DNA from: Synechococcus sp. CS-1332
GTDB lineage: Bacteria > Cyanobacteriota > Cyanobacteriia > PCC-6307 > Cyanobiaceae
Length of the DNA stretch: 64,000 bases
NCBI RefSeq assembly: GCF_025127995.1
Contig: NZ_JAHLYP010000042.1
Location: 124,001 to 188,000 of the forward strand
Reading direction: 5' to 3'
Made by a program: the position numbers and the translations under genes. The notes beneath the pieces were generated by a model. The model saw only the letters and a program-made list of their open reading frames with translations. It was not told the origin of the DNA and ran no database searches. Shown piece by piece: positions 1,687-19,517 of the stretch (the stretch's first letter is position 1; the number at the start of each line of letters is the position of its first letter).

Positions 1687-3136
1687 GGGCGGCCTCCGCC
1701 AGGCTTTGCTGCACCACCAGGCTCAGCCGTTCCAGGTGGTCAGGGAGCGTGTGAGGGTTGCCCAGCACCGCCTTGAGATGGTGGTGACCCCGATAGACCG
1801 GCCGCGACAGCATCAGCTGCTCAGCCAGCAGGGCCGCCCGGGTGGCGGCGCTCCAGCGCTCCGCCGCGGCCCCTTCGCAGCCATCGGGCCGGAAGGCCAG
1901 CAGGTGCAGGGGGCCGCTGCAGAGGGTCAGGCCACCGATGGCCCGCAGCCGCTGCTCCAGGTCCGTGCGGCGCTGGACAGCGGCGTCGATGAGGGCGGCC
2001 ACGCCGTCGAGGCCGAGCTGCCGCAGACCCAGCCAGAGCTTGAGGATCTCTCCTGGCCTGGTGCCCTGCAGCCCCGCCTCCCCCTGGTGGCCGCCGCCCC
2101 AGCTGGGCTCCATATAGGGCAGTCCGGTGCCGAAGGCCCGCTGCAGGTGGCGCGGATCCGCCAGCAGCAGCAGGGAGGAGGTCTTGGTGATGCCGAGCAG
2201 CTTCTGGGGATTGACCGTGATCGAATCGGCCAGAGCCAGGCCGGCGAGCCGGGAACGGAACCGCTCGCTGAAGGCGAAGATGGCGCCAATGGCCCCGTCC
2301 ACGTGCAGCCAGTGGCCGTAGTGGCGGCACAGCGCCGCAATGGGCTCCAGGGGATCGAGGGCACCGCGCACGGTCGTGCCGGAGGTGGCCACCACGGCAA
2401 TCACGGGGGTACCGGCCCGGTCGAGCTGCGCCAGCCGCTCCTCGAGGGCCTGCGGCTCCAGGCTGCCGGTCGCGGTGACGGGGAGTTGCACCAGGGCCTC
2501 GGCCGGCAGACCCATCACGGCGGTGGCCTTGATCAGCGAGACGTGGGCCTCTTCGCTGCACAGCACCACCGCCTCACCCCGGCAGGCCAGACCACGGCGA
2601 TGGCGGGCAGTGACCAGAGCCATCAGGTTGCTGAGGCTGCCGCCGCTGGCGGCCACGCCCCCGGCACCGTCGGGCAGGCCAAGCCGACTGGCCATCCAGG
2701 CGCAAAGGGCCCGCTCCAGGCGACTGAGGCTGGGCGAGAGCTCTTCAGCCAGCAGGTTGTTGTTCAGGCCGGCGCAGATCAGGTCGGCCACGATCGAAGC
2801 CGACAGGGGCGGCGGATCGAGGTGGGCCAGGGCGCCGGGGTGATTGGGGTTGTAGGCCCCTTCCATCACCAGTTGCAGATCGGCCAGCAGCCTTTCGCTG
2901 CCGAGCCCTGCCGCCTCCGGTTCCACCGCCGGCAGCACGCTCAAGCCCGGAAGGGGAGTGCCATGGCCGGCCTGGCCCAGCCAGCGACAAAGGAGTCCGG
3001 ACGCCTGCTGCAGGAGGTCCTCCAGGGCCGGGTCCACCTGAAAGGGGTCCGGGAAGGAGCCGAACTCCTGGGGGGGCGGCGCTGGCCGGTGGGCGGGGGG
3101 GACGCTGGCCAACGGCGACTGTGGGGGTCTCGGCAT
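1679..3136 (-). CDS. PLP-dependent group II decarboxylase
   Basis: A fold-type I pyridoxal-phosphate decarboxylase of the group II family (glutamate, aromatic-amino-acid and L-2,4-diaminobutyrate decarboxylases). Numbered from the ATG at 3136 (485 aa), SGGSLSNL at 164-171 binds phosphate, HVDGA at 278-282 supplies the cofactor Asp, and K312 in NPQK is the Schiff-base lysine. The frame stays open to 3385, but that part lies opposite tadA and is Pro/Arg-rich, so 3136 is preferred. Substrate cannot be read from sequence; picocyanobacterial homologues are often annotated as diaminobutyrate decarboxylase. The next gene starts within its stop region. Confidence 0.85.
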   Translation of the reverse strand: MPRPPQSPLASVPPAHRPAPPPQEFGSFPDPFQVDPALEDLLQQASGLLCRWLGQAGHGTPLPGLSVLPAVEPEAAGLGSERLLADLQLVMEGAYNPNHPGALAHLDPPPLSASIVADLICAGLNNNLLAEELSPSLSRLERALCAWMASRLGLPDGAGGVAASGGSLSNLMALVTARHRRGLACRGEAVVLCSEEAHVSLIKATAVMGLPAEALVQLPVTATGSLEPQALEERLAQLDRAGTPVIAVVATSGTTVRGALDPLEPIAALCRHYGHWLHVDGAIGAIFAFSERFRSRLAGLALADSITVNPQKLLGITKTSSLLLLADPRHLQRAFGTGLPYMEPSWGGGHQGEAGLQGTRPGEILKLWLGLRQLGLDGVAALIDAAVQRRTDLEQRLRAIGGLTLCSGPLHLLAFRPDGCEGAAAERWSAATRAALLAEQLMLSRPVYRGHHHLKAVLGNPHTLPDHLERLSLVVQQSLAEAAHG

Positions 3137-3177
3137 TCTGCCGGGTGCCCGGGCGGAGGGATGGCTAGAAGCAGGGG

Positions 3178-3672
3178 ATGGTGAGTGACGCCAACAGCCT
3201 GCTGTGGATGGACCGGCTCCTGCGGCTCTCCGAGGCGGCCGGGACCCGGGGGGAGGTGCCCGTGGCGGCCGCCTTGCTGGATGAGGCTGGACGCTGCGTG
3301 GGCTGGGGAAGCAATCGCCGCCATCTCCGGGCAGACCCCCTGGGGCACGCCGAACTGCTGGCCCTGCGCCGGGCCGCAGCGACACGGGGCGACTGGCGCT
3401 TCAACGGCTGCACCTTGCTGGTGACCCTTGAGCCCTGTCCCATGTGCGCCGGTGCCCTGATCCAGGCGCGGGTGGGCACGGTGATCTACGCCGCCGCTGA
3501 TCCCAAACGCGGCGCCCTCGGCGGCAGCCTGGACCTCGCCAGCCACCCCAGTGCCCACCACCACATGGTGGTGAAAGGCGGGGTGCGCGGCGAGCGGGCC
3601 GCGCAGCAACTGGAGAATTGGTTCCGACTCCGGCGCCTGGCCCGCCAGGTTGACGGCCTAAAGCAGGCCTGA
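3178..3672 (+). CDS. tadA: tRNA adenosine(34) deaminase TadA
   Basis: Zinc-dependent deaminase that converts A34 to inosine in tRNA-Arg(ACG). The 164-residue protein has the full cytidine-deaminase-fold active site: H57-A-E59 (zinc ligand and catalytic Glu) and P86-C87-P-M-C90 (two zinc cysteines). Length fits the family. It diverges from the PLP decarboxylase, whose start is about 40 bp away, so the two share a compact promoter region. An in-frame GTG directly follows the ATG, so either could initiate. It converges on the aminotransferase gene with only 1 bp between stop codons. Confidence 0.95.
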   Translation: MVSDANSLLWMDRLLRLSEAAGTRGEVPVAAALLDEAGRCVGWGSNRRHLRADPLGHAELLALRRAAATRGDWRFNGCTLLVTLEPCPMCAGALIQARVGTVIYAAADPKRGALGGSLDLASHPSAHHHMVVKGGVRGERAAQQLENWFRLRRLARQVDGLKQA

Positions 3673-3673
3673 C

Positions 3674-4870
3674 TCAGGCGATCGCGGCGGCCACGGGCGC
3701 AGGCGAAGGACGGAAGGCGGGCAGTTCGCTGGCAAAAATGTCGAGCAGTCGGTCGACATTCTCCGGCGTGCTGTTGTAACCCATCAGGCCGATGCGCCAC
3801 ACCTTTCCGGCCAGATCCCCGAGCCCACCGCCCACCTCAATACCAAAACGATCAAGCAGGTGGCGGCTGAAGGCCTTGCCATCGACCCCCTCGGGGATGC
3901 GGACGGTGGTGAGGGTGGCCAGACGCAGGGGCTCGCTGACATGCAGTTCCAGGCCCAGCTGTTCCAGGCCGGCCCAGAGGCGCTCGGCATTGCTGCGGTG
4001 GCGCGCCCAGGCGGCCTCGAGTCCCTCTTCGGCCAGGAGCCGCAGGGCTTCGCGCATGCCGAAGTTCATGTTGACCGGAGCGGTGTGGTGATAGACCCGA
4101 TCGCTGCCCCAGTACTTGTTGAGCAGAGAGACATCCAGGTACCAGTTGGGCACCTTTCCGGAGCGGGCGGCCAGCTTGGCCTCGGCCCGCGGACCCATGG
4201 TGAAGGGGCCCAGGCCCGGGGGGCAGCTGAGGCCTTTCTGGCTGCAGCTGTAGGCCAGATCCACCTTCCAGGCATCGATGTGCAGCGGCACCGCCCCAAG
4301 GGACGTGACCGTGTCGAGCAGCAGCAAGCAATCGTGCTGCCGGCAGAGATCACCGATCCCCTCCATCGGCTGACACACGCCGGTGGAGGTTTCGGCATGC
4401 ACCATCGCCAGGATGGCGGGCTTGTGGGCGATCAGGGCCGCTTCGAGTTCGGCCAGCTCAAAGGCCTCCCCCCAAGGCCGTTCGATGCTGACCACCTCGG
4501 CGCGGTAGCGGCCGGCCATGTCGACCAGGCGCTGGCCGAAATAGCCCATCACCGCCACCAGCACCTTGTCGCCGGGCTCGATCGTGTTGGCCAGGGTTGC
4601 TTCCATAGCGGCGCTGCCGGTGCCGCTCATCGGGATGGTGAGGCGGTTGTCGGTCTGCCAGGCGTAGCGCAGCAGCTCCTGCACCTCCCCCATCAGGTCG
4701 ATGTACAGGGGATCCAGGTGGCCGATCGGCATCCGGGCCAGGGCCTGCAGGACCGTGGGGTGGGCGTTGGAGGGTCCAGGACCCAGCAGCAGCCGCTCCG
4801 GGGTGGCAATCGGGTCCAGAGCGAGCCTGTGGGTGCTGCTGATGGAGGGAGGCACTGGGAGAAGGGGCAA
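3674..4870 (-). CDS. Class V aminotransferase (alanine/serine-glyoxylate type)
   Basis: A PLP aminotransferase of the alanine-glyoxylate/serine-glyoxylate family, historically labelled soluble hydrogenase 42 kDa subunit in cyanobacteria. It would transaminate glyoxylate from photorespiration. The 398-residue protein has SGTGSAAME at 82-90 for phosphate binding, D186 in LLDTVTS for the pyridine nitrogen, and the Schiff-base lysine K212 in SCSQKG. It sits 48 bp downstream of apcF's stop on the opposite face of the same strand order, next to a glutamine-synthetase-like gene; this aminotransferase-glnA neighbourhood is familiar from marine picocyanobacteria (from memory). Confidence 0.88.
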   Translation of the reverse strand: MPLLPVPPSISSTHRLALDPIATPERLLLGPGPSNAHPTVLQALARMPIGHLDPLYIDLMGEVQELLRYAWQTDNRLTIPMSGTGSAAMEATLANTIEPGDKVLVAVMGYFGQRLVDMAGRYRAEVVSIERPWGEAFELAELEAALIAHKPAILAMVHAETSTGVCQPMEGIGDLCRQHDCLLLLDTVTSLGAVPLHIDAWKVDLAYSCSQKGLSCPPGLGPFTMGPRAEAKLAARSGKVPNWYLDVSLLNKYWGSDRVYHHTAPVNMNFGMREALRLLAEEGLEAAWARHRSNAERLWAGLEQLGLELHVSEPLRLATLTTVRIPEGVDGKAFSRHLLDRFGIEVGGGLGDLAGKVWRIGLMGYNSTPENVDRLLDIFASELPAFRPSPAPVAAAIA

Positions 4871-4917
4871 GACCTGGCGGAGCGGCAGAAGTGATACGAG
4901 GTTAGGGAATGGCCGCC

Positions 4918-5436
4918 TCAGCGAGCGCGGACGTTGCTGGAGGAGAGGCCGCGGCAGAGATGCTCGAAGGGGGCCCGCACCAGACCGGTGTTCACCAGGC
5001 CGGCATCGGCCAGCATCTCGGCGATCACCTCGCCGAGCAGGGCGATGCTGCGGACGGTCGGTCCGGTGGGAACGCCCAGGCTCTTGTAGGTGTCGTCGAG
5101 GCCGTTGAGAACACGCTCGTTGAGGATGGTGAAGTCGTCGGCCACCAGGGCATAGCTGGCGTAGCGCAGGAAGTAATCCATGTCGCGCAGGCAGGCCGAC
5201 AGGCGCCTGGTGGTGTAGGCGTTGCCGCCGGGGAGGAGCAGCTCGGGGTCTTCAAGCCAGAGGCGTTGGGCGGCCTCGCGCACGATGACGGCCGCTTCCC
5301 GGTTGATCAGTTCGACAGCGGCGAGACGCAACTCCGCCTGGCCGTAGTAGGCATCAATCCGATCGATCGCGGAGCGATCGAAGTAGCGGCCCAGCTGGTC
5401 ATAGCGACCAATCAGACCGGTGATGGCATCTCGCAT
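4918..5436 (-). CDS. apcF: Allophycocyanin beta-18 subunit
   Basis: A core phycobilisome subunit that replaces ApcB beside the membrane linker ApcE and helps pass energy to the photosystems. The 172-residue protein starts MRDAITGLI, has the beta-subunit GGNAYTTRR motif with N72 (the usual methyl-Asn position) and C82 in ACLRDMDYFLRYA for phycocyanobilin attachment. The frame is open to 6021, but conservation begins at the ATG at 5436 and upstream codons lie opposite the glutamine-synthetase-like gene. The sequence is closer to ApcF than ApcB (GPTVRSIALL, elongated C-terminus). Divergent from the next gene across 163 bp, which should hold both promoters. Confidence 0.93.
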   Translation of the reverse strand: MRDAITGLIGRYDQLGRYFDRSAIDRIDAYYGQAELRLAAVELINREAAVIVREAAQRLWLEDPELLLPGGNAYTTRRLSACLRDMDYFLRYASYALVADDFTILNERVLNGLDDTYKSLGVPTGPTVRSIALLGEVIAEMLADAGLVNTGLVRAPFEHLCRGLSSSNVRAR

Positions 5437-5599
5437 GGACGAAACGGATCGACGCACCTGCAGCGGAAGGTAGCACTCGCGATCCGCCAGATTCCTGTGC
5501 TGCGGCTGGTTCTGGGGAATCTGACAGAAACGGTTACGCGGCCACCGGCCCGCCGAGGGGGCAGCATCGTGGCGGCAGCCTTCCCACCCGCCCCCCTCC

Positions 5600-6931
5600 A
5601 TGGCCACCTCCGCCCAGGACATCCTGCGCCGCCTCGGGGAGGACGGCATCGAGCGCATCGACCTGAAGGTGAGTGACCTGGAGGGTCGCTGGCATGCGAT
5701 CGGCTTTGAGGCGCACCGCTTCGGCGAGGAGGTGTTTCGTCGAGGCCTTCCCCTGGACAGCCTCAGCGCGGAGCCGGGGCGGACGCTGCCAGCCGCCAGC
5801 GGCCTGATCTTGCATCCGGACCCCAGCACCGCCTGGATCGACCCCTTCCTCACCCCGAGGAGCCTCAGCCTGATCGCGGCGTTCGAGGCACCCACAGAGG
5901 CCTCGACAGGATTCCGCCATTGCCCCCGCTCCCTCGCCGCCCGCGCCCTGGCCGAGCTGACCAGCAGCGGACTGGCGGATGGTGCCCGCTTCGGAGCCGA
6001 ACAAGGCTTCTTTCTGTTCAAGGACCTGGACGCCTACGGCGATGGCCAGGGCTGTGGTTACAGGGTCAGCCTCGGCCCGGCGATACCGGAAGAGCTCCGC
6101 AGCGAGCTTCTGCTCACCCTGGCGGCCCTGGATCTGCGGGCCCACCTGCAGCAACCGGCGCCGCAGGGGCCCCTGCAGCAGCTGACCCTGGGAAGCGGCG
6201 ATCCGCTGCGGGCTGCGGATGCCCTGATGGTCAGCCGCTACGTGGTGCGTCATGTGGCACAGCGCCACGGCTGGCGTGCCACCCTCCTGCCGAGGCCCAC
6301 CCTGGAGCGCACCTGCGCCGGCCTGGCGGTGCACCAGAGCCTCTGGAGGGCCGGGCAACCCCTGTTCTGCGGGGAGGGAACCTACGGCGACCTGTCCCAG
6401 ACCGCCCGCTGGTACCTGGGGGGGCTGCTGCGCCACGGCCCCTCCCTGGCTGCATTCACCAACCCCGGGACCAACAGCTACCGGCGGCTAAGGAGCGGCC
6501 CCGAGGCCCCGATCCGGCTCACCTACGCCAGGAATGACCCGTCCACCGTGGTCGACGTTCCTGCCAGCGGCAGCGATCCCGCCAAGCGGCGGCTGGTGCT
6601 GCGTCAGGCGGATGGGCTGGCCAATCCCTACCTGGCCTTTGCAGCCATGCTGATGGCCGGACTCGATGGCGTGCGGCGCCAGAGCGATCCCGGATCGCCG
6701 AGTGATCAGGAGTCCGCCGCCGCCCGTTCAGCGGGATCCGGTGGCGCCACCCTGCCCGCCGACCTGAGCCAATCCCTGGACGCCCTGGCCGACGACCACG
6801 GCTATCTGCTGGCCGGTGGCGTCTTCAGTCGGGAACTGGTCGAGGACTGGATCGCCTCGAAACGCCAGGAGGTGGAGGACCTGGAGCATCGGCCCCATCC
6901 GCACGAGTTCAGCCGCGACCCCATGGCCTGA
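5600..6931 (+). CDS. Glutamine synthetase-like protein, probable pseudoenzyme
   Basis: Clearly related to type I glutamine synthetase: the N-terminus (AQDILRRLGEDGIERIDLK), NPYLAFAAMLMAGLDG near 342-357 and AGGVFSRELVEDWI all match GlnA. Hand alignment to enterobacterial GlnA suggests that most metal ligands are lost: the EPEF pair becomes E134-Q-G136, the HHEVA...GQ-E block is missing (about 182-197), the catalytic His of GSGMH is A244, and KRIE becomes RRLV333. NRS...R arginines for ATP are also replaced. About 30 residues are missing overall (443 against about 470), mainly around 148-165. The frame is intact, so it is probably expressed and not a simple pseudogene. Role unknown; a regulatory or structural paralogue is inference. 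Confidence 0.8.
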   Translation: MATSAQDILRRLGEDGIERIDLKVSDLEGRWHAIGFEAHRFGEEVFRRGLPLDSLSAEPGRTLPAASGLILHPDPSTAWIDPFLTPRSLSLIAAFEAPTEASTGFRHCPRSLAARALAELTSSGLADGARFGAEQGFFLFKDLDAYGDGQGCGYRVSLGPAIPEELRSELLLTLAALDLRAHLQQPAPQGPLQQLTLGSGDPLRAADALMVSRYVVRHVAQRHGWRATLLPRPTLERTCAGLAVHQSLWRAGQPLFCGEGTYGDLSQTARWYLGGLLRHGPSLAAFTNPGTNSYRRLRSGPEAPIRLTYARNDPSTVVDVPASGSDPAKRRLVLRQADGLANPYLAFAAMLMAGLDGVRRQSDPGSPSDQESAAARSAGSGGATLPADLSQSLDALADDHGYLLAGGVFSRELVEDWIASKRQEVEDLEHRPHPHEFSRDPMA

Positions 6932-6932
6932 A

Positions 6933-7202
6933 TCAGGGCCGCAGCAGCCAGGCCAGCAGCAGCCCCAGTCCGCCCCAACGCAACGCCGACCAGAAGCGAT
7001 CGCCGTGCCGGGTGCTCGGCAGCAAAGCTTCGGGGAGGGGATCCAGCAGCCGTTGGGCCAGCTCCAACCGTTGCCGCCGCCGCCGCAGGGTCACGCCCGT
7101 GGAAGCCACGGCCCCCGGGCGTCCGGCCAGGCTGAGCACCGCCGCCAGTTGGTGCAGCAATCCCGGTGACGATGAGCGGCGGGGGCGCTGGAGTCGGCTC
7201 AT
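6933..7202 (-). CDS. Small membrane-anchored protein, unknown function
   Basis: An 89-residue basic protein with many Arg-rich segments and a hydrophobic C-terminal helix (about 70-87, WGGLGLLLAWLL), suggesting a tail anchor. I chose the ATG at 7202; the frame also allows an ATG at 7250, but that would overlap the divergent gene beginning at 7241. It converges on the glutamine-synthetase-like gene with 1 bp between them. I do not recognise a family. Support is composition, a plausible divergent arrangement and tight packing, so this is tentative. Confidence 0.45.
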   Translation of the reverse strand: MSRLQRPRRSSSPGLLHQLAAVLSLAGRPGAVASTGVTLRRRRQRLELAQRLLDPLPEALLPSTRHGDRFWSALRWGGLGLLLAWLLRP

Positions 7203-7240: not shown

Positions 7241-7603
7241 ATGGATCCACGTCAGGCCGATCGTCCAGTGGAAGCCAGCAGCAATCCAGCCGAAACAGCT
7301 TCCCCGTCCACCGTTTCGGTTGTGTCGAATCGATCGTGGCCTGCCGAGGCCCTGCCCTTAGCCGAACGGCTGCACCGCCAGCTCAGCATTGGCGATCGGG
7401 ACTGGCACGCCCTCAAGCACCAGCGCTCCCGGCGGGCGGCCGAGCAGGTGGCTGCGGCCCTGGTGCAACTCCTCGCCGCCGATGAGCCTGCCGCCAGCGC
7501 GACTGGCGAGGGTCGGCGGAGCGCCATCGCCCTGCTGGAGAACGCCCAGGCCTGGCTGCGGGCCGAGATCAGCGATCCGGGCTGTCCTGCCCACGGCCGC
7601 TGA
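7241..7603 (+). CDS. Conserved cyanobacterial small protein (DUF6439-like)
   Basis: A 120-residue soluble protein. The N-terminal 35 residues are low-complexity; the rest forms an alpha-helical unit beginning LAERLHRQLSIGDRDWHALK, followed by an Ala/Leu-rich helix and ending AWLRAEISDPGCPAHG. That DPGCP-x-H ending resembles a small picocyanobacterial family I associate with DUF6439; this is recollection, not a search. Start chosen at ATG 7241, since the upstream codons run into the divergent gene. Its 3' end overlaps the convergent ATPase gene by 35 bp. Function unknown. Confidence 0.65.
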   Translation: MDPRQADRPVEASSNPAETASPSTVSVVSNRSWPAEALPLAERLHRQLSIGDRDWHALKHQRSRRAAEQVAAALVQLLAADEPAASATGEGRRSAIALLENAQAWLRAEISDPGCPAHGR

Positions 7604-7994
7604 CCGTCGCTCGCCGTGCCGCCAGCTGCAGCCGGTTGCCCCGGCTGCTCCAGCGGACATCATCAAAGCAGTGGTGGATGAGGAACAGGCCCCGACCGGA
7701 AAGGGCATCCTGCTCGCAGGGCAGGACATTCTGGCGGGCATGGGGCGGGAGCCCGGGGCCTTCGTCCTGAACCTGCCAGACCACCCAGCGAGGGGTGACG
7801 ATCCGGCGCACCCTCAGGCACTTGCCCGGATCGCAGCCGTTGCCGTGTCGCACGGCATTGACCAGGGCCTCCTGGAGACCGAGCTGCAGCTCCGCCTGAC
7901 GGAGGGCGCAGCCGATGGGTTCAAGAAGCAACTCCACCAGCGGAGCCAGCTGCAGGGTGGAGGGGGTGATGTAGTCGGCCCAGCGGAGCTGCAT
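7569..7994 (-). CDS. Anti-sigma-factor type ATP-binding protein (RsbW-like)
   Basis: A compact 141-residue HATPase of the RsbW/SpoIIAB serine-kinase class. The N box is EALVNAVRHGNG, the G1 box DEGPGLPP and the G2 region GRGLFLIHHCFDDV, in the order expected for the GHKL fold. Proteins like this bind and inhibit sigma factors and phosphorylate a STAS-domain antagonist; a STAS protein is encoded at 44184-44567, though not adjacent. The frame is open to 8162, but conservation begins at the ATG at 7994 (MQLRWADYITPS) and the longer form overlaps gun4. Convergent overlap of 35 bp with the upstream small gene. Confidence 0.85.
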   Translation of the reverse strand: MQLRWADYITPSTLQLAPLVELLLEPIGCALRQAELQLGLQEALVNAVRHGNGCDPGKCLRVRRIVTPRWVVWQVQDEGPGLPPHARQNVLPCEQDALSGRGLFLIHHCFDDVRWSSRGNRLQLAARRATVSGRGQDSPDR

Positions 7995-8026
7995 GAAGCA
8001 GGAATTCCCATTCGCCTGATTTGAAC

Positions 8027-8773
8027 CTAACGCGCCCTCCCTGCCGGCGCCTCCCCCAGGCGGGCCTGGATGGCGGGATGTTGCAGAAGCGCGTCCATCA
8101 ACCGCACACCCCGCAGCTGATTGACCAGCGGCATGTGGCCCTCCGGCGCTTCGAGGGACCACTGGAAAGCTCCCGGATAGCGGGTCCAGGTGCCCTCACT
8201 TTTCCACCCGAGCCTGGGCCAGAGCCGATCCCATTGCCCCTGACACCCCTGCAGCAGCCGGGCCTGGACCGAGAAGCCGAAGCGCCCCTGGGAGTAACAG
8301 CACCAGAGACGGTCGAGGCTGGTGAGGTCGGTGCCGGACATGGCCGCCACCTCGCTGTAATAGACGTAGCCGCGGCGAACGGCCGCCCCACCGGCCAGCT
8401 GGCGCAGGTGCTCGCTGGTGAGACGATCGGCCTCCTCGAAGGCCTGCCGCATCAGGTGGTGCTGCAACGGCGCGTAGTCGAGGCCAGCGATGCTGGCGAC
8501 GGCGAGCCAGCCATCGGGATGGCGGGCCAGGAGGGCGTCCTGCCGAGCCGCATCACCGCAGGCCATCAGCAGCTGGATCAGATGGCCGGCGGCCCAGTCG
8601 TCGCCAGTGGCGTCGAGCTGGTCGAGCCTGTCCGGGATCAGATCCAGCAGCTCTGTTCCAGCCTGCTCGAGCTGGCCCAGGAGGCTGCGGCGCTGACGGA
8701 GCGAACCAGCGAGGAAACGACCCAGCAGCTGTTCGGCATCGACGGTGCTGGAAACCGGAGGACCGGAGAGCAT
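8027..8773 (-). CDS. gun4: GUN4 domain protein, Mg-chelatase activator
   Basis: Porphyrin-binding activator of the ChlH subunit of magnesium chelatase in chlorophyll synthesis. The 248-residue protein has a helical N-terminal half, as in Synechocystis Gun4, then the GUN4 core from about 85: LQHHLMRQAFEEADRLT, DLTSLDRLWCCYSQGRFGFSVQ and GTWTRYPGAFQWSLEAPEGHMPL. These are family hallmarks. Length fits the two-domain form. The final residues (about 225-248) are basic and variable. It is divergent from psb28 across 126 bp, so two photosynthesis-assembly genes may share that regulatory interval. Confidence 0.93.
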   Translation of the reverse strand: MLSGPPVSSTVDAEQLLGRFLAGSLRQRRSLLGQLEQAGTELLDLIPDRLDQLDATGDDWAAGHLIQLLMACGDAARQDALLARHPDGWLAVASIAGLDYAPLQHHLMRQAFEEADRLTSEHLRQLAGGAAVRRGYVYYSEVAAMSGTDLTSLDRLWCCYSQGRFGFSVQARLLQGCQGQWDRLWPRLGWKSEGTWTRYPGAFQWSLEAPEGHMPLVNQLRGVRLMDALLQHPAIQARLGEAPAGRAR

Positions 8774-8899
8774 GGGCAGACGACCAGCCGAAAAGGCAGC
8801 ATGGTGGAAACCACTATGTCAGGGCCGATGGGCACTGGCTGAATGGTGAGCAGGGAGGGGGTTCTGGCCCTGCCTAAAGTCCCATTTTCAGAGAATGCC

Positions 8900-9274
8900 A
8901 TGGCCGCCGCCATTCAGTTCTTCCGCGGTGTGGACGAGACGGTCGTGCCCGACATCCGCCTGACCCGATCGCGGGATGGCCGCACCGGCCAGGCCACCTT
9001 CGTGTTCGAGGAGCCCGAGGCCCTGGCTCCCCAGGCCGTGGGCGATATCACCGGCATGTTCATGCTCGATGAAGAGGGCGAGATGGTGACCCGGGAGGTG
9101 AAGGCCCGCTTCGTCAACGGCAAGGCCAGCGCCCTGGAAGCCACCTACACCTGGAAGAGCACCGCCGATTTCGAGCGCTTCATGCGCTTCGCCCAGCGCT
9201 ATGCCGACGGCCACGGCCTCGGGTTTGCCGGCCAGGGTGACGAGCCGGCCGAGGAGGGCCAGGAGGAGGCTTGA
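8900..9274 (+). CDS. psb28: Photosystem II assembly protein Psb28
   Basis: Cytoplasmic-side assembly factor that binds PSII intermediates lacking the full oxygen-evolving complex. The 124-residue protein starts [25 protein letters not shown] and contains [25 protein letters not shown] and [17 protein letters not shown], all characteristic. ATG at 8900 was chosen over 8843 because homologues begin there. An acidic Glu-rich extension ends the protein. The downstream permease starts with a TTG that overlaps this stop codon (TTGA), suggesting coupling of a photosynthesis gene to a transporter. Confidence 0.95.
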
Positions 9275-10344
9275 AATTCGGCCAGTGGTTGGGCCTGATC
9301 GCCCTGATGGCGGCGCTCGTTCTGTTGTGGAGCCTGCGTGACGCCCTGATCCTCCTGTTCGCCGCCGTGGTGCTCGCCATGGCGCTCTGCACCCTGGTGG
9401 GCGCCATCCGGGAACGGATCGGTGTGGCCAGGCCCATCGCCCTGCTGCTGGCCCTGTTGCTGGTGACGCTGCTGGTGCTGATCGTCGCCACGGTCGTGAT
9501 CCCCCCCTTCATCGCCGAGTTCCGCGAACTCGTGCAGCAAGTGCCGCGGGCCTGGGCGGAGTTGTTGAAGCTGTTGCGCCACGCCCTTGAGGGGGCGTCA
9601 CAGATGGTGTATGGCCGCAGGGACGGCAGCCTCGACTGGCTCAAATCCACCCTCTCGATTCCGGCCACCCTGCCCCCCGACCTGCTGGGCCGCCTCGGCG
9701 GTGGGGCGATCGGCCTGGTGGGGGTGGCCGGCAACCTCGGTGCCGGCCTGCTCCAGACCCTGTTCGTGGTGGCCGTCTCCCTGATGGTCGCCGCCCAGCC
9801 CACCGGCTACCGGGAGGCCCTGCTGCTGCTGGCGCCCTCCTTTTACCGGCGGCGCCTGCGCCAGGTGCTGGTGTCCTGCGGCACCGCCCTGAGCAGCTGG
9901 ATGGTGGGGGTGCTGATCAGCTCCGTCTGCGTGGGTCTGCTGGCGGCCATCGGCCTGTCCGTGCTGGGCGTGAAGCTGGTGGCGGCCAATGCCCTGCTGG
10001 CCGGCCTGCTCAACATCATCCCCAACGTGGGACCGACGCTCAGCACGATTTTCCCGATGTCGGTGGCGCTCCTTGATGCCCCCTGGAAGGCCGTGGCCGT
10101 TCTGGTGGTTTACGTGATCATCCAGAACCTCGAGAGCTATGTCATCACCCCCTCGGTGATGCACCATCAGCTGCAGCTGCTGCCGGGCCTGACCCTCACC
10201 GCCCAGCTCCTGTTCACCCTGCTGTTCGGCCCGCTCGGCCTGCTGCTGGCCCTGCCCCTGGCGGTGTGCCTGCAGGTGCTGCTGCGGGATGTGTTGATCC
10301 ATGACATCCTCGATCCCTGGAAGCGGGAGCGCCAACAGACATGA
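9271..10344 (+). CDS. AI-2E family transporter (PerM/YhhT type), copy 1
   Basis: A 357-residue polytopic membrane protein of the AI-2 exporter superfamily. Hydrophobic helices fill the N-terminus (three between 5 and 80), a soluble stretch lies at about 85-150, and a C-terminal membrane bundle contains the hallmark [16 protein letters not shown] and [15 protein letters not shown]. Start is TTG at 9271, overlapping the psb28 stop; an ATG at 9307 is an alternative that would shorten the first helix. The next gene is a homologue starting in its stop codon. Substrate unknown; family members have been linked to AI-2, Na+/H+ exchange or export of small molecules. Confidence 0.85.
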
Positions 10345-16620: not shown

Positions 16621-17112
16621 ATGAAAGCCAGCCATGGAAACCCCTTTCGAGCCACCTTCGGTGTTGGGCTGTTTCTGAGTGTGCTGCTGCAGATCCCGGC
16701 AGCCTTGGGGGCCGACCCGACGTCTGGACGAACGGTGGACATCCTCTGGAGGGCTCCAGGGCGTCAATCCATCGCCATCCAGAAGGAACTGGACTTCGAG
16801 GGCTCTGTGACGCAGGAGGGCAAATCCCAACCCGACGTCCGGTCACCGGCCCTGATCTACGTCCTGGTAGGCCTCGTGAGCATCGATCTGCTGGTGAAGA
16901 CCTTGATGATGGCCTACAAGGACGTGCGCTACGGCGGCATCGTCGTTCGTCGTGGAGCCGATGACAGGTTGGAAATCCAGAACGACAAACGCCTGGCAGG
17001 GGGAACGATCGTCGTCGATCAGGGGAAGGCGAAGGATCTGCGGATCTTTCGTGCCAGTGAAAAGCCCGCGTCCGGGGAGTTGCTTGAGGCGATCACGCCC
17101 CTGCTGCGGTGA
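16621..17112 (+). CDS. Exported membrane protein of unknown function, upstream of caspase-like gene
   Basis: A 163-residue protein with an N-terminal signal or anchor (about 10-30, ending AALGADP) and a second hydrophobic helix at about 75-97 (ALIYVLVGLVSIDLLVKTL). The C-terminal 65 residues are soluble, beginning KDVRYGGIVVRRGADDRLEIQ and containing GGTIVVDQGKAKDLRIF. That places either the tail or the loop with the first signal in the cytoplasm; topology is uncertain. The stop overlaps the GTG of the caspase-like gene (GTGA), so the two form a coupled pair. No family recognised. Base composition is somewhat lower in G+C than neighbours. Confidence 0.65.
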   Translation: MKASHGNPFRATFGVGLFLSVLLQIPAALGADPTSGRTVDILWRAPGRQSIAIQKELDFEGSVTQEGKSQPDVRSPALIYVLVGLVSIDLLVKTLMMAYKDVRYGGIVVRRGADDRLEIQNDKRLAGGTIVVDQGKAKDLRIFRASEKPASGELLEAITPLLR

Positions 17113-18299
17113 CCACCAACCGCCTGCCGGTCCTCGTCCAGCTGGCGTCGGCCCTTTGGTTGGGGTGGGGCTGCGTCACAAGCACATCGGCTCAGGAAGG
17201 GTTGCAGGTTGCCGACCCCAAGGGCACGCCCATGTTCCGCTACGGGGGCAGCCACGCTCTGATCATCTGGGCAGGCGATTACAAAGATCCCTTTTGGAAG
17301 AAACTCAACAATCTTCAACGTGAAGCCGCTGATGTCGCGGCAGCACTTCATCGCCAAGGGTTTCAGGTTGATGTTGTTGCTAATCCAGGCTCACAGAAAC
17401 TGAAGCAGTCCATCGAAGACTTTGTGAAGCGATATGGCTATCATCCAGACCATCGTTTGGTGATTTACTTTGCTGGTCATGGCTGGACCCGCAACAATGA
17501 CCTCGGCTATCTCGTTCCAGTGGATGCTCCAGCCGCCTCTCACCCAAGCAGTGATCTGGAGTTTGCAAAATCTGCCCTCAGCATGGAGCAGATCATGTCA
17601 TGGGCAAAACAGATGGAAGCCAAGCACGTACTCTTCATCTTCGACAGCTGTTTCTCGGGAGCCATTTTCAAGGTGCGTTCAGCCTCTCCTGCACCCACCT
17701 ACCTACAACGAAAGATACGTCTACCGGTCAGACAGTTTCTTACTGCCGGCGATGTCAATGAGGTGGTCCCTGCCACAAGTCTCTTCACCCCCCTGCTCAT
17801 ACGAGGCCTCGATGGCGCGGCGGATATCAACCGCGATGGATACGTCACTGGTTCTGAACTTGGCGAGTATCTGCCCCAGCAGATGGCCACATACAGCACA
17901 ACGCAGAATCCCCAGTACGGAAAGATTCGTGATCCTCGACTGGACGAAGGCGACATCGTTTTCCGCGTCGTCAGGTCTTCTGGAGAGAGCGCACCGCCCC
18001 TCCGCACAAGCTCGCCTCTTCCCCAGGCGACAGCTCCAGGAGGGGGAGGTCGGATCGAGAACCTGCCGATGCCCTCGCTGCCCGAGCCCTCGCTCAGCGT
18101 GCCCCAGCCTTCCATGCGCCAGGGGAAGCCAATCCTGATCCGCACCGAATCGATCCGCAATCGTGGCGATGCCCTCCAGCTGGCGATGGATCAGGTGCCA
18201 CCGGGCGCCACGGTGACGGATAGCCGATGCACTGCGATCTCCGTCGCCGGCAATGCCCGCTATCGCTGCAGCGTCTGGTTCAGCTCCCCTTCCCCCTGA
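17109..18299 (+). CDS. Secreted caspase-like (C14/metacaspase) protease with EF-hand and C-terminal Cys domain
   Basis: A 396-residue protein. An N-terminal signal ends near TSTSA (28). The caspase p20 fold covers about 45-290, with H124 in YFAGHGW and C181 in FDSCFSG forming the catalytic dyad. A loop at 239-250, DINRDGYVTGSE, fits the EF-hand consensus (D, N, D, Y, T, E at 1, 3, 5, 7, 9, 12), suggesting calcium binding, which is known to activate metacaspases. A Pro-rich linker (about 295-340) leads to a 50-residue domain with C374 and C387 (GATVT...RYRC). That domain recurs in the free protein at 19206-19517. GTG start overlaps the preceding stop. G+C is visibly lower at 17280-17700. Substrate unknown. 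Confidence 0.85.
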   Translation: MTTNRLPVLVQLASALWLGWGCVTSTSAQEGLQVADPKGTPMFRYGGSHALIIWAGDYKDPFWKKLNNLQREAADVAAALHRQGFQVDVVANPGSQKLKQSIEDFVKRYGYHPDHRLVIYFAGHGWTRNNDLGYLVPVDAPAASHPSSDLEFAKSALSMEQIMSWAKQMEAKHVLFIFDSCFSGAIFKVRSASPAPTYLQRKIRLPVRQFLTAGDVNEVVPATSLFTPLLIRGLDGAADINRDGYVTGSELGEYLPQQMATYSTTQNPQYGKIRDPRLDEGDIVFRVVRSSGESAPPLRTSSPLPQATAPGGGGRIENLPMPSLPEPSLSVPQPSMRQGKPILIRTESIRNRGDALQLAMDQVPPGATVTDSRCTAISVAGNARYRCSVWFSSPSP

Positions 18300-19129
18300 T
18301 CGACGCCGCGCGCATGCATCAGGGCGCGGGCCAGTGCCATCCAACGCTCGGGCCCCAGCTCCTGGGGCCGCTGCTGCAGGTCCACCCCGGCGGCGGTAGC
18401 CAGCTCCAGCAGTTCCGGCGCCGGCAGCAGGCCCGCCAGGCTGGTGCGCAGCATCTTGCGTCGTCCAGCGAAGCACCGCCGCAGCAGGCTCTCCACCGCC
18501 AGGGCCTGGTCCAGCGGTGGCAGGTCCGCCGCCGCCACCGGCTCGATCACGATCACCTCCGAGGTGACCTTCGGTGGCGGGGAGAAGCAGCGGGGCGGCA
18601 CCGTGCAGACGCTGCTGCAGCGGGCCAGCAACTGCATCCGCACGCTGAGGGCCGAGAAGGCGCTGCTGCCCGGCCGGGCCCGGATGCGCTGGCCCACCTC
18701 CTGCTGCACCAGCAGCACCAGCCGCTCGAAGCGGCAGGGGGCCGGCCGGCCGAGGCGACCCACCAGCACCTCCAGCAACGGGCCGGTGATGTTGTAGGGA
18801 ATGTTGGCGACCACCTTGGTGGGAATGGGCCGTTCGGGGCAGGGCAGGGCCAGTTCGAGTACGTCACCCTCGATCAGGCTGAAGCGCCCGTCGTCGCCGA
18901 ACCGCTGCCGCAGGCCCACCACCAGGTCCCGGTCCAGCTCCACCGCCAGCAGGGACGCCGCCGGGGACTCCAGCAGCCGTTCGGTCAGGGCGCCCCGCCC
19001 CGGGCCCACCTCCAGGACGTGGTCGGCGCCGTCCAGATCGGCGGCCGCCACGATGCGATCCAGGATCTGGGGATCGGTGAGCCAGTGCTGACCGAAGCGC
19101 TTGCGGGCCCGGTGGCCGCTGAAGGTCAT
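18260..19129 (-). CDS. ksgA: 16S rRNA dimethyladenosine transferase
   Basis: SAM-dependent enzyme (RsmA/KsgA) that dimethylates two adenosines of helix 45 in 16S rRNA. The 289-residue protein begins MTFSGHRARKRFGQHWLTD, has EVGPGRGALT at 40-49 for SAM, GDV near 88-90, and the catalytic NIPYN at 109-113. Its C-terminal end overlaps the convergent caspase-like gene by 40 bp. In related genomes ksgA and ispE are, to my memory, neighbours in one operon; the separation here is about 1.7 kb. Confidence 0.95.
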   Translation of the reverse strand: MTFSGHRARKRFGQHWLTDPQILDRIVAAADLDGADHVLEVGPGRGALTERLLESPAASLLAVELDRDLVVGLRQRFGDDGRFSLIEGDVLELALPCPERPIPTKVVANIPYNITGPLLEVLVGRLGRPAPCRFERLVLLVQQEVGQRIRARPGSSAFSALSVRMQLLARCSSVCTVPPRCFSPPPKVTSEVIVIEPVAAADLPPLDQALAVESLLRRCFAGRRKMLRTSLAGLLPAPELLELATAAGVDLQQRPQELGPERWMALARALMHARGVDQGEGELNQTLQR

Positions 19130-19205
19130 GGAGGCGCCGGCAGGTCACCCCAGATTGCAGGGCCGTCGGGCCTGGCTAGAGATGGAGCAGCGTTCCCCCT
19201 CCGCC

Positions 19206-19517
19206 ATGGCCCATGGTTTCCGGCTGACTGGTCCCCTGTTGACCCGTCCCCTGCTCACCGGTGCCCTGCTGGCCGGCGGCCTTGCCCTGCTGGCGGGCCC
19301 CGCCCACGCGGGCAGCGTCACCGCCGAATCAATCTTCGACCGTCAGGCCACCCGCCAGCAAGCCAAGAGCCAGGTGCCCAAAGGCGCCACGGTGACTCGC
19401 ACGGTCTGCGAAGACCTGGAGGTGGGCATGGACAACACCCGATACCGCTGCACCGTCTTCTACACAACAGCTCCGGCCAGCCCAGCTCCAGCCGCTCCGG
19501 CCACCAGCCAGCCCTGA
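19206..19517 (+). CDS. Small secreted protein sharing the caspase-like protein's C-terminal domain
   Basis: A 103-residue protein with a long hydrophobic signal (about 10-36, ending GPAHAG) and a mature part of about 65 residues. ESIFDRQATRQQAKSQVPKG, then C68 and C82 (GATVT...RYRC), matches the end of the caspase-like protein: both have ESI, R, A, QVP, GATVT, a Cys, N, RYRC and V in the same order. The two cysteines could form a disulfide outside the cytoplasm. ATG at 19206 chosen because the signal starts there. It ends in a Pro/Ala-rich tail. Function unknown; inhibitor, prodomain mimic or partner of the protease are possibilities. Confidence 0.7.
   Translation: MAHGFRLTGPLLTRPLLTGALLAGGLALLAGPAHAGSVTAESIFDRQATRQQAKSQVPKGATVTRTVCEDLEVGMDNTRYRCTVFYTTAPASPAPAAPATSQP

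What the first reader, a model, noticed from the sequence alone, without database searches (positions are those of the whole stretch)
17109..19517. A caspase-like protease and a small secreted protein share one Cys-containing domain, on either side of ksgA
The last 50 residues of the protease (from about 346) and the mature part of the protein at 19206-19517 match position by position: ESI, R, A, QVP, GATVT, Cys, N, RYRC, V. Each has two cysteines about 13 residues apart. The free copy has its own signal peptide. This looks like either a domain duplication fused to the protease or a toxin/partner pair: the free copy might bind, inhibit or compete with the protease's tail. I know of no description of such a domain. 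Seen directly: the shared pattern. Inferred: homology and functional link.
Basis: partly seen in the sequence, partly recalled or inferred. Interest (0 to 1): 0.75.

Follow-up and report, generated by a model that had tools for sequence, protein, structure and literature searches.

The report
Caspase with captured host-protein tail
In a few Cyanobium-like cyanobacteria a caspase-like protease that looks exported carries at its end a copy of a small two-cysteine protein that nearly every genome searched in their genus also makes on its own; the match is real, but the two genes do not look like a dedicated pair.

Summary
The shared domain is real: tail (18138-18290) and free protein (19311-19475) align at 45% identity, E 2e-10; 0 of 20,000 shuffles reach the score. 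It is a ~50-residue two-Cys domain with no Pfam or NCBIfam match, modelled as beta-alpha-beta-beta, pLDDT 91, found only in the window's family. The toxin/partner reading fails: 41 of 42 genus genomes have the free gene, 5 the tailed caspase. In two of those five no ksgA is near the caspase; instead a TIR-TPR gene follows it. In 103 domain copies the caspase is the only fusion partner seen. A cyanobacterium outside the window's order has the same upstream gene and caspase with GUN4 in the tail's place. Best reading: an exported orthocaspase in a small conflict-type operon laid out like EACC1-caspase systems, whose exchangeable C-terminal slot took up a host domain as sensor, bait or docking module. 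Sequence tests do not place the upstream gene in EACC1. Nearness to the free gene comes from cassette insertion beside ksgA. Function is inferred, not shown. Boldest surviving reading: an integrated decoy.

The parts
16621..17112 (+). 163-aa operon partner ('up163'): hydrophobic N-terminus plus a second hydrophobic helix (residues 78-96), no known family
   Evidence: ORF; homologue upstream of the caspase in G113, G352, G243 and outgroup G613, in G005 and as a remnant in G217; no match in Pfam, PADLOC or NCBIfam at E 0.1 for the window protein; hydropathy
17109..18299 (+). caspase-like protease (orthocaspase) with export-signal-like N-terminus and C-terminal two-Cys domain
   Evidence: PF00656 1.1e-12, residues 49-185; NF047832 66.2 bits, below its cut-off of 140; PADLOC 'caspase' model 1.4e-8; H124 (GHG) and C181 (DSC) invariant in 5 aligned sequences including the outgroup
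17979..18131 (+). Pro-rich linker (residues 291-341), fast evolving
   Evidence: alignment; dN/dS 0.55-0.74 in three pairs against 0.07-0.11 in the core
18138..18290 (+). tail copy of the two-Cys domain (residues 344-394)
18260..18299 (.). 40-nt convergent overlap of the protease and ksgA 3' ends; same length in L005 and L007
   Evidence: ORF tables; KsgA is 289 aa with a different C-terminus in these three, 281 aa ending GGA in 7 of 8 compared loci without the cassette (294 aa in the eighth, L013; L011 not compared), and 281 aa in L004, whose cassette remnant lies elsewhere
18260..19129 (-). ksgA (16S rRNA dimethyladenosine transferase; name recalled)
   Evidence: ORF; tblastn to relatives
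19206..19310 (+). signal-peptide-like N-terminus of the free protein
   Evidence: 96 of 103 domain copies have a hydrophobic stretch just upstream
19311..19475 (+). free copy of the two-Cys domain, most of the mature protein
   Evidence: AlphaFold2 pLDDT 91.3, pTM 0.71, strand 2-7, helix 11-20, strands 27-38 and 42-52
19206..19517 (+). free small secreted-type protein gene, divergent from ksgA
   Evidence: ORF; a ksgA-adjacent copy in 55 of the 85 genomes whose loci were read

Best explanation
16621-18299 is a two-gene cassette: a small protein with two hydrophobic stretches, its stop overlapping the start of an orthocaspase with an export-signal-like N-terminus. Shown by sequence: the caspase core is constant with an intact His-Cys pair; a fast-evolving Pro-rich linker joins it to an exchangeable C-terminal domain, the two-Cys domain in five genomes of the window's genus and GUN4 in a cyanobacterium outside the window's order; two versions have a TIR-TPR gene directly downstream; the cassette is sporadic, sits at different sites and has one decayed copy. 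Inferred: it works as a stress- or invader-triggered conflict module in the style of EACC1-caspase systems, in which the C-terminal domain senses a ligand or serves as bait or docking site in the periplasm and its state licenses the caspase (self-cleavage in the linker or cleavage of partners), with TIR-TPR as a cytosolic effector where present. The free protein at 19206-19517 belongs to the family-wide set of host proteins from which this kind of domain was recruited; it may share the tail's ligand, but its nearness here comes from insertion of the cassette beside ksgA, not from a dedicated pair.
For: Domain homology. Only fusion partner seen: of 103 distinct domain copies 96 follow a hydrophobic stretch directly; the seven exceptions are the five caspase tails, one contig-edge cut (G274) and one borderline case (G174). 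Slot exchange: G613 has the upstream gene plus a caspase with GUN4 (PF05419 9.7e-36) in the same place. TIR_2 plus TPR gene next on the same strand in G352 and G243; no match to it at 1e-5 in the five other genomes tested. Upstream gene and caspase overlap by 4 nt in four of the five intact pairs read (window, L005, G352, G243); 18-nt gap in G613. Sporadic: 6 of 400 family genomes match the caspase at E below 1e-100, five of them with the tail. Decayed tail-less remnant in G217/L004 on the other side of the free gene: catalytic-site residues changed, frame change, in-frame stop in the upstream gene. Tail under more constraint than the linker in two of three pairs. Layout of EACC1-caspase systems as described in PMC7159879 section 33 (section read in full). 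Of three actinobacterial plasmid relatives of this caspase, the small gene just upstream is EACC1 over the Pfam cut-off in one, below it in one, without match in one.
Against: No function is tested. up163 has no EACC1 match, and profile comparison with three EACC1-type proteins gives probability 0.1. The caspase scores 66 bits against 140 for the EACC1-associated subfamily. TIR-TPR is absent from the window genome. The second hydrophobic helix of up163 is weak in G243 (best window there 1.01), so membrane insertion is unsure. One of three tail dN/dS values (0.88, few changes) exceeds that of the linker (0.74). The GUN4 comparison rests on one genome. Export is read from hydrophobic N-termini; no signal-peptide program was run.
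Confidence: 0.5

Rival explanations
1. Toxin/partner or protease/inhibitor pair: the free protein binds or competes with the protease tail.
For: Same predicted compartment, same domain, about 1 kb apart here; all five genomes with a tailed caspase also have a free copy.
Against: 36 of the 37 genus genomes without the tailed caspase have the free gene, as do 178 of 400 family genomes by a match at E 0.001. In G352 and G243 tail and free copy are on different contigs of draft assemblies. No joint structure could be run.
Confidence: 0.12
2. Local duplication: the tail is a recent copy of the neighbouring free gene, carried to the other side of ksgA.
For: Same strand, either side of ksgA; p-AU 0.064 does not formally reject it.
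Against: Free copies of the window clade form a group that excludes the tails (97/97); G352 and G243 have tails with no ksgA nearby; forced grouping costs 26.9 log units. Tail to own free copy 43% identity, free to free 89-98% among close relatives.
Confidence: 0.06
3. General sorting or surface-anchoring domain that happens to be on the caspase.
For: Small C-terminal domain on a protein that looks exported; two cysteines in all 103 copies.
Against: A sorting domain would sit on many proteins; here most matched genomes show 1-5 copies and one fusion partner was seen in 103 copies. The window genome shows two copies in all.
Confidence: 0.12
4. Autoinhibitory or activity-gating tail with no external ligand (zymogen-type control).
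For: Variable linker and compact folded tail; the slot is filled in the five tailed caspases and in the GUN4 outgroup.
Against: Exchange with GUN4, described as tetrapyrrole-binding (PMC7159879 passage), fits sensing better. The full-length model failed (pLDDT 37), so docking of the tail could not be judged either way.
Confidence: 0.2

Closest known systems
EACC1-caspase two-gene conflict systems (System 4 of Kaur et al. 2020, PMC7159879)
   Same: Small 5' gene with a hydrophobic helix, then a caspase with highly variable C-terminal domains (section 33 read in full). Actinobacterial plasmid relatives of this caspase follow EACC1-type small genes, one of three over the Pfam cut-off.
   Different: The 5' gene is not EACC1 by sequence; the caspase is below the subfamily cut-off; both proteins look exported; the paper names actinobacteria and, sporadically, proteobacteria, and the window is a cyanobacterium.
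Cyanobacterial orthocaspases with accessory domains, GUN4 included (PMC8283722)
   Same: Peptidase C14 usually N-terminal, accessory domain C-terminal; GUN4 in 29 of the proteins tabulated there (passages seen).
   Different: The two-Cys domain has no database name, so a table of named domains could not show it. PMC3501461 (passages) reports no metacaspase in 26 Synechococcus/Prochlorococcus/Cyanobium strains, whereas 10 of 42 genomes of this genus match the catalytic part at 1e-5, one of them decayed.
Dodecin-type beta-alpha-beta-beta folds; 1vr4 (YbjQ-like, recalled) and RcsF
   Same: Same order of elements and whole-length alignments: 1vr4 Z 6.0, rmsd 2.0 over 54; dodecins Z 4.9-6.0; RcsF 2y1b Z 5.1, rmsd 3.4 over 55.
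   Different: No sequence match; no Foldseek hit at E 0.001; Z below 8 may be a common arrangement, and ribosomal-protein rows lie just below; ligand sites and oligomer not compared.

Membership tests
Peptidase C14 / orthocaspase | Caspase domain above the Pfam cut-off | tested here: met
   PF00656 48.6 bits, cut-off 21.4
Peptidase C14 / orthocaspase | His-Cys catalytic pair | tested here: met
   H124 in AGHG and C181 in FDSC invariant in five aligned sequences; assignment as catalytic recalled
EACC1-caspase system | Upstream gene encodes EACC1 (PF19953) | tested here: not met
   No Pfam match at E 0.1 for three up163-type proteins and none to EACC1 for G613's; PF19953 in the whole own genome: one hit on another contig at 0.458, under the cut-off; profile comparison probability 0.1
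EACC1-caspase system | Caspase in the EACC1-associated subfamily | tested here: not met
   NF047832 is the only NCBIfam match but 66.2 bits against a cut-off of 140
EACC1-caspase system | Small 5' gene plus caspase with variable C-terminal domain | tested here: met
Dodecin family | Dodecin fold | tested here: inconclusive
   Fold resembles, Z 4.9-6.0, below the level that stands clear of common arrangements
Dodecin family | Flavin-binding dodecamer | not testable with these tools
   no oligomer or ligand modelling available
Any named family for the two-Cys domain | Match in Pfam, NCBIfam or PADLOC | tested here: not met
   No match for free protein or tail at E 1 in Pfam and NCBIfam; free protein none in PADLOC at 0.1

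The most novel reading that the evidence does not exclude
A bacterial 'integrated decoy': an exported caspase of a conflict operon has built in a copy of a family-wide host envelope protein (in another cyanobacterium, of the host protein GUN4), so that an attacker that targets the host protein, or a change in its ligand, also acts on the tail and fires the caspase, with TIR-TPR as a second effector in some strains.
Probability: 0.12. Interest if true: 0.85.

Novelty: new variant of a known kind. Interest (0 to 1): 0.5.

Why it matters
It describes a domain family found here only in one cyanobacterial family, often fixed beside ksgA and with no match in Pfam or NCBIfam, and shows that an orthocaspase took it up in a slot that in another cyanobacterium holds GUN4. 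That gives a concrete way to ask what prokaryotic caspases sense, in a clade once reported to lack them, and carries the plan 'constant caspase, variable C-terminus' to proteins that look exported. The decoy reading is directly testable.

Tried and rejected
Phages: no relative of the free protein at E 0.1. Viral contigs: none for the free protein or a marine-type paralogue, one weak caspase relative (27% identity). Solved structures: no sequence match at 0.01 for the protease and only weak, chance-like matches for the domain and up163. Full-length caspase model: pLDDT 37, unusable, though the tail took the same order of elements. EACC1 membership of up163: tested, failed. Two Rhizobium plasmid caspases and one Deinococcus one were fetched for comparison; the parts of the Rhizobium ones beyond the caspase domain matched no Pfam family; the Deinococcus one was not scanned. 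A search for more up163 in the order of G613 found only G613 (1 of 214). Link of DUF1471 or RcsF to dodecin in print: one paper on a fungus and none. 'Integrated decoy' with 'bacterial' and 'caspase': 16 papers hold the terms; the eight listed are by title and abstract start not about prokaryotic immunity (listing only). Checked on re-reading: one search counts 58 ksgA-adjacent copies in 55 genomes; the surplus three are caspase tails in loci cut inside ksgA, so 55 genomes stands.
Full report
What is there. Two ORFs on the + strand, a caspase-like protease (17109-18299) and a small protein (19206-19517), flank ksgA (18260-19129, -). Protease residues 344-391 match free residues 38-86 at 45% identity, E 2e-10. 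In the whole own genome the free protein finds itself and then the tail, E 1.6e-7; 0 of 20,000 shuffles reach the alignment score.

The domain. Free protein and tail have no Pfam or NCBIfam match at E 1. A profile of 14 members finds it in 31 of 386 genomes sampled across the phylum, and all 31 belong to the window's family. The free protein alone finds 178 of 400 family genomes at E 0.001; of the 20 genomes without a match that the call listed (222 in all), 19 are 1.3-2.2 Mb. In the genus the domain is in 41 of 42 genomes. Of 85 genomes whose loci I read (best matches first plus hand-picked ones, so not a frequency estimate), 55 have a copy within 450 bp of the ksgA start and divergent from it; one of the rest, G274, is cut by a contig edge. 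Of 103 distinct copies all have two cysteines in the aligned part (the profile itself favours this), and 96 follow a hydrophobic stretch; the exceptions are the five caspase tails, one contig-edge cut and one borderline case. Start codons were not mapped copy by copy. AlphaFold2 gives pLDDT 91.3, pTM 0.71, beta-alpha-beta-beta, with the two cysteines on the last two strands. In the VIA-align list 1vr4 and dodecins fill the first 15 rows, RcsF is at ranks 17 and 19, ribosomal proteins follow; Z is 6.0 at best, which by the tool's own note may be a common arrangement.

The caspase. PF00656 at 1.1e-12; H124 and C181 invariant in five aligned sequences. Orthologues at E below 1e-100: 6 of 400 family genomes, namely G000, G113, G005, G352 and G243 with the tail and G217 without. 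G217 is decayed: changed residues at both catalytic motifs, a frame change after about residue 265, no tail in any frame, and an in-frame stop in its upstream gene. G005 (L007) has a broken frame near its N-terminus, which may be an assembly error. The other four have a hydrophobic N-terminus and a Pro-rich linker. The linker evolves fast (dN/dS 0.55-0.74 in three pairs) and the core slowly (0.07-0.11); the tail (residues 342-383) gives 0.23, 0.43 and 0.88, the last with few changes and above its linker value. Other caspases occur in the genus: 10 of 42 genomes match the catalytic part at 1e-5.

Neighbourhood. A 163-aa gene overlaps the caspase start by 4 nt here and in L005/G113, G352 and G243. 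In G352 and G243 no ksgA lies in the 10-12 kb read around the cassette, and the next gene on the same strand encodes a TIR_2 plus TPR protein of 745 and 741 aa; no match to it was found in the other five genomes tested. In the three ksgA-linked genomes caspase and ksgA overlap by 40 nt and KsgA is 289 aa with a different ending; it is 281 aa in 7 of 8 compared loci without the cassette and 294 aa in the eighth (L013; L011 was not compared), and 281 aa in L004, whose remnant lies elsewhere. The simplest reading is that the cassette was inserted beside ksgA in this sub-clade, so that the nearness of tail and free gene is secondary.

Origin of the tail. The three tails fall outside the free-copy clade of their own genomes (97/97). 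A tree holding tails and own free copies together is 26.9 log units worse, p-AU 0.064; all five tails as one clade cannot be rejected, p-AU 0.484. With 55 columns the deeper order is unresolved, and the tool warns of long branches.

Slot exchange. A phylum sample for the 163-aa gene found 4 of 373 genomes: three of the genus and G613, of another family and listed as 'same class'. G613 has the gene 18 nt upstream of a caspase whose C-terminal slot holds GUN4, PF05419 9.7e-36, with 45% identity to the window protein over the alignment. A wider look in its order found no second case (1 of 214).

Reading. In layout this is the EACC1-caspase plan: a small 5' gene with a hydrophobic helix, a constant caspase, many alternative C-terminal domains (PMC7159879 section 33, read in full). 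Of three actinobacterial plasmid relatives, the gene just upstream of the caspase is EACC1 over the Pfam cut-off in one, below it in one and unmatched in one. But up163 is not EACC1 by sequence and the caspase is under the subfamily cut-off: it resembles such a system, and membership is not met. The exported-looking N-termini and two cysteines suit an oxidising compartment; that is inference. The tail as sensor, bait or docking module is inference from slot exchange and from the free homologues; gating of the caspase is inference by analogy.

What it is not. A dedicated toxin/partner pair is unlikely: 36 of 37 genus genomes without this caspase have the free gene. A general sorting tag is unlikely with one fusion partner in 103 copies. 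An earlier survey reported no metacaspase in 26 Synechococcus/Prochlorococcus/Cyanobium strains (PMC3501461, passages); the sporadic caspases here add to that picture. Paper searches that showed no description of the domain: (listings).

Noticed in passing
L078 (G243:C165:1-10000), 4880-6989: Beside the caspase-TIR cassette lie genes that look, by recalled motifs only, like a fluorescence recovery protein, a desaturase/ketolase-type enzyme and an orange carotenoid protein.
   Followed up: no
L133 (G613:C68:28000-44000), 7591-9609: Exported-looking caspase-GUN4 fusion with an up163 homologue directly upstream in a cyanobacterium outside the window's order.
   Followed up: yes
L004 about 5560-6900 (L081; G217): Decayed, tail-less up163-caspase remnant on the other side of the free gene, between it and a minus-strand yraN-like gene (name recalled).
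   Followed up: yes
L145, L146, L173-L178 (G034, G075, G101): Single-contig genomes of another genus in the family carry two or three free paralogues of the two-Cys domain with no ksgA match nearby.
   Followed up: partly
L138 (Deinococcus aetherius plasmid), 1948-6265: A caspase gene directly follows a gene annotated as I42-family protease inhibitor, with a C1 peptidase gene further upstream.
   Followed up: no
window 17109-18299, residues about 239-251: A D-x-N-x-D-G-Y-x-T-x-x-E loop in the caspase, weakly matched by EF-hand models (E 0.18-0.24), may bind calcium.
   Followed up: no
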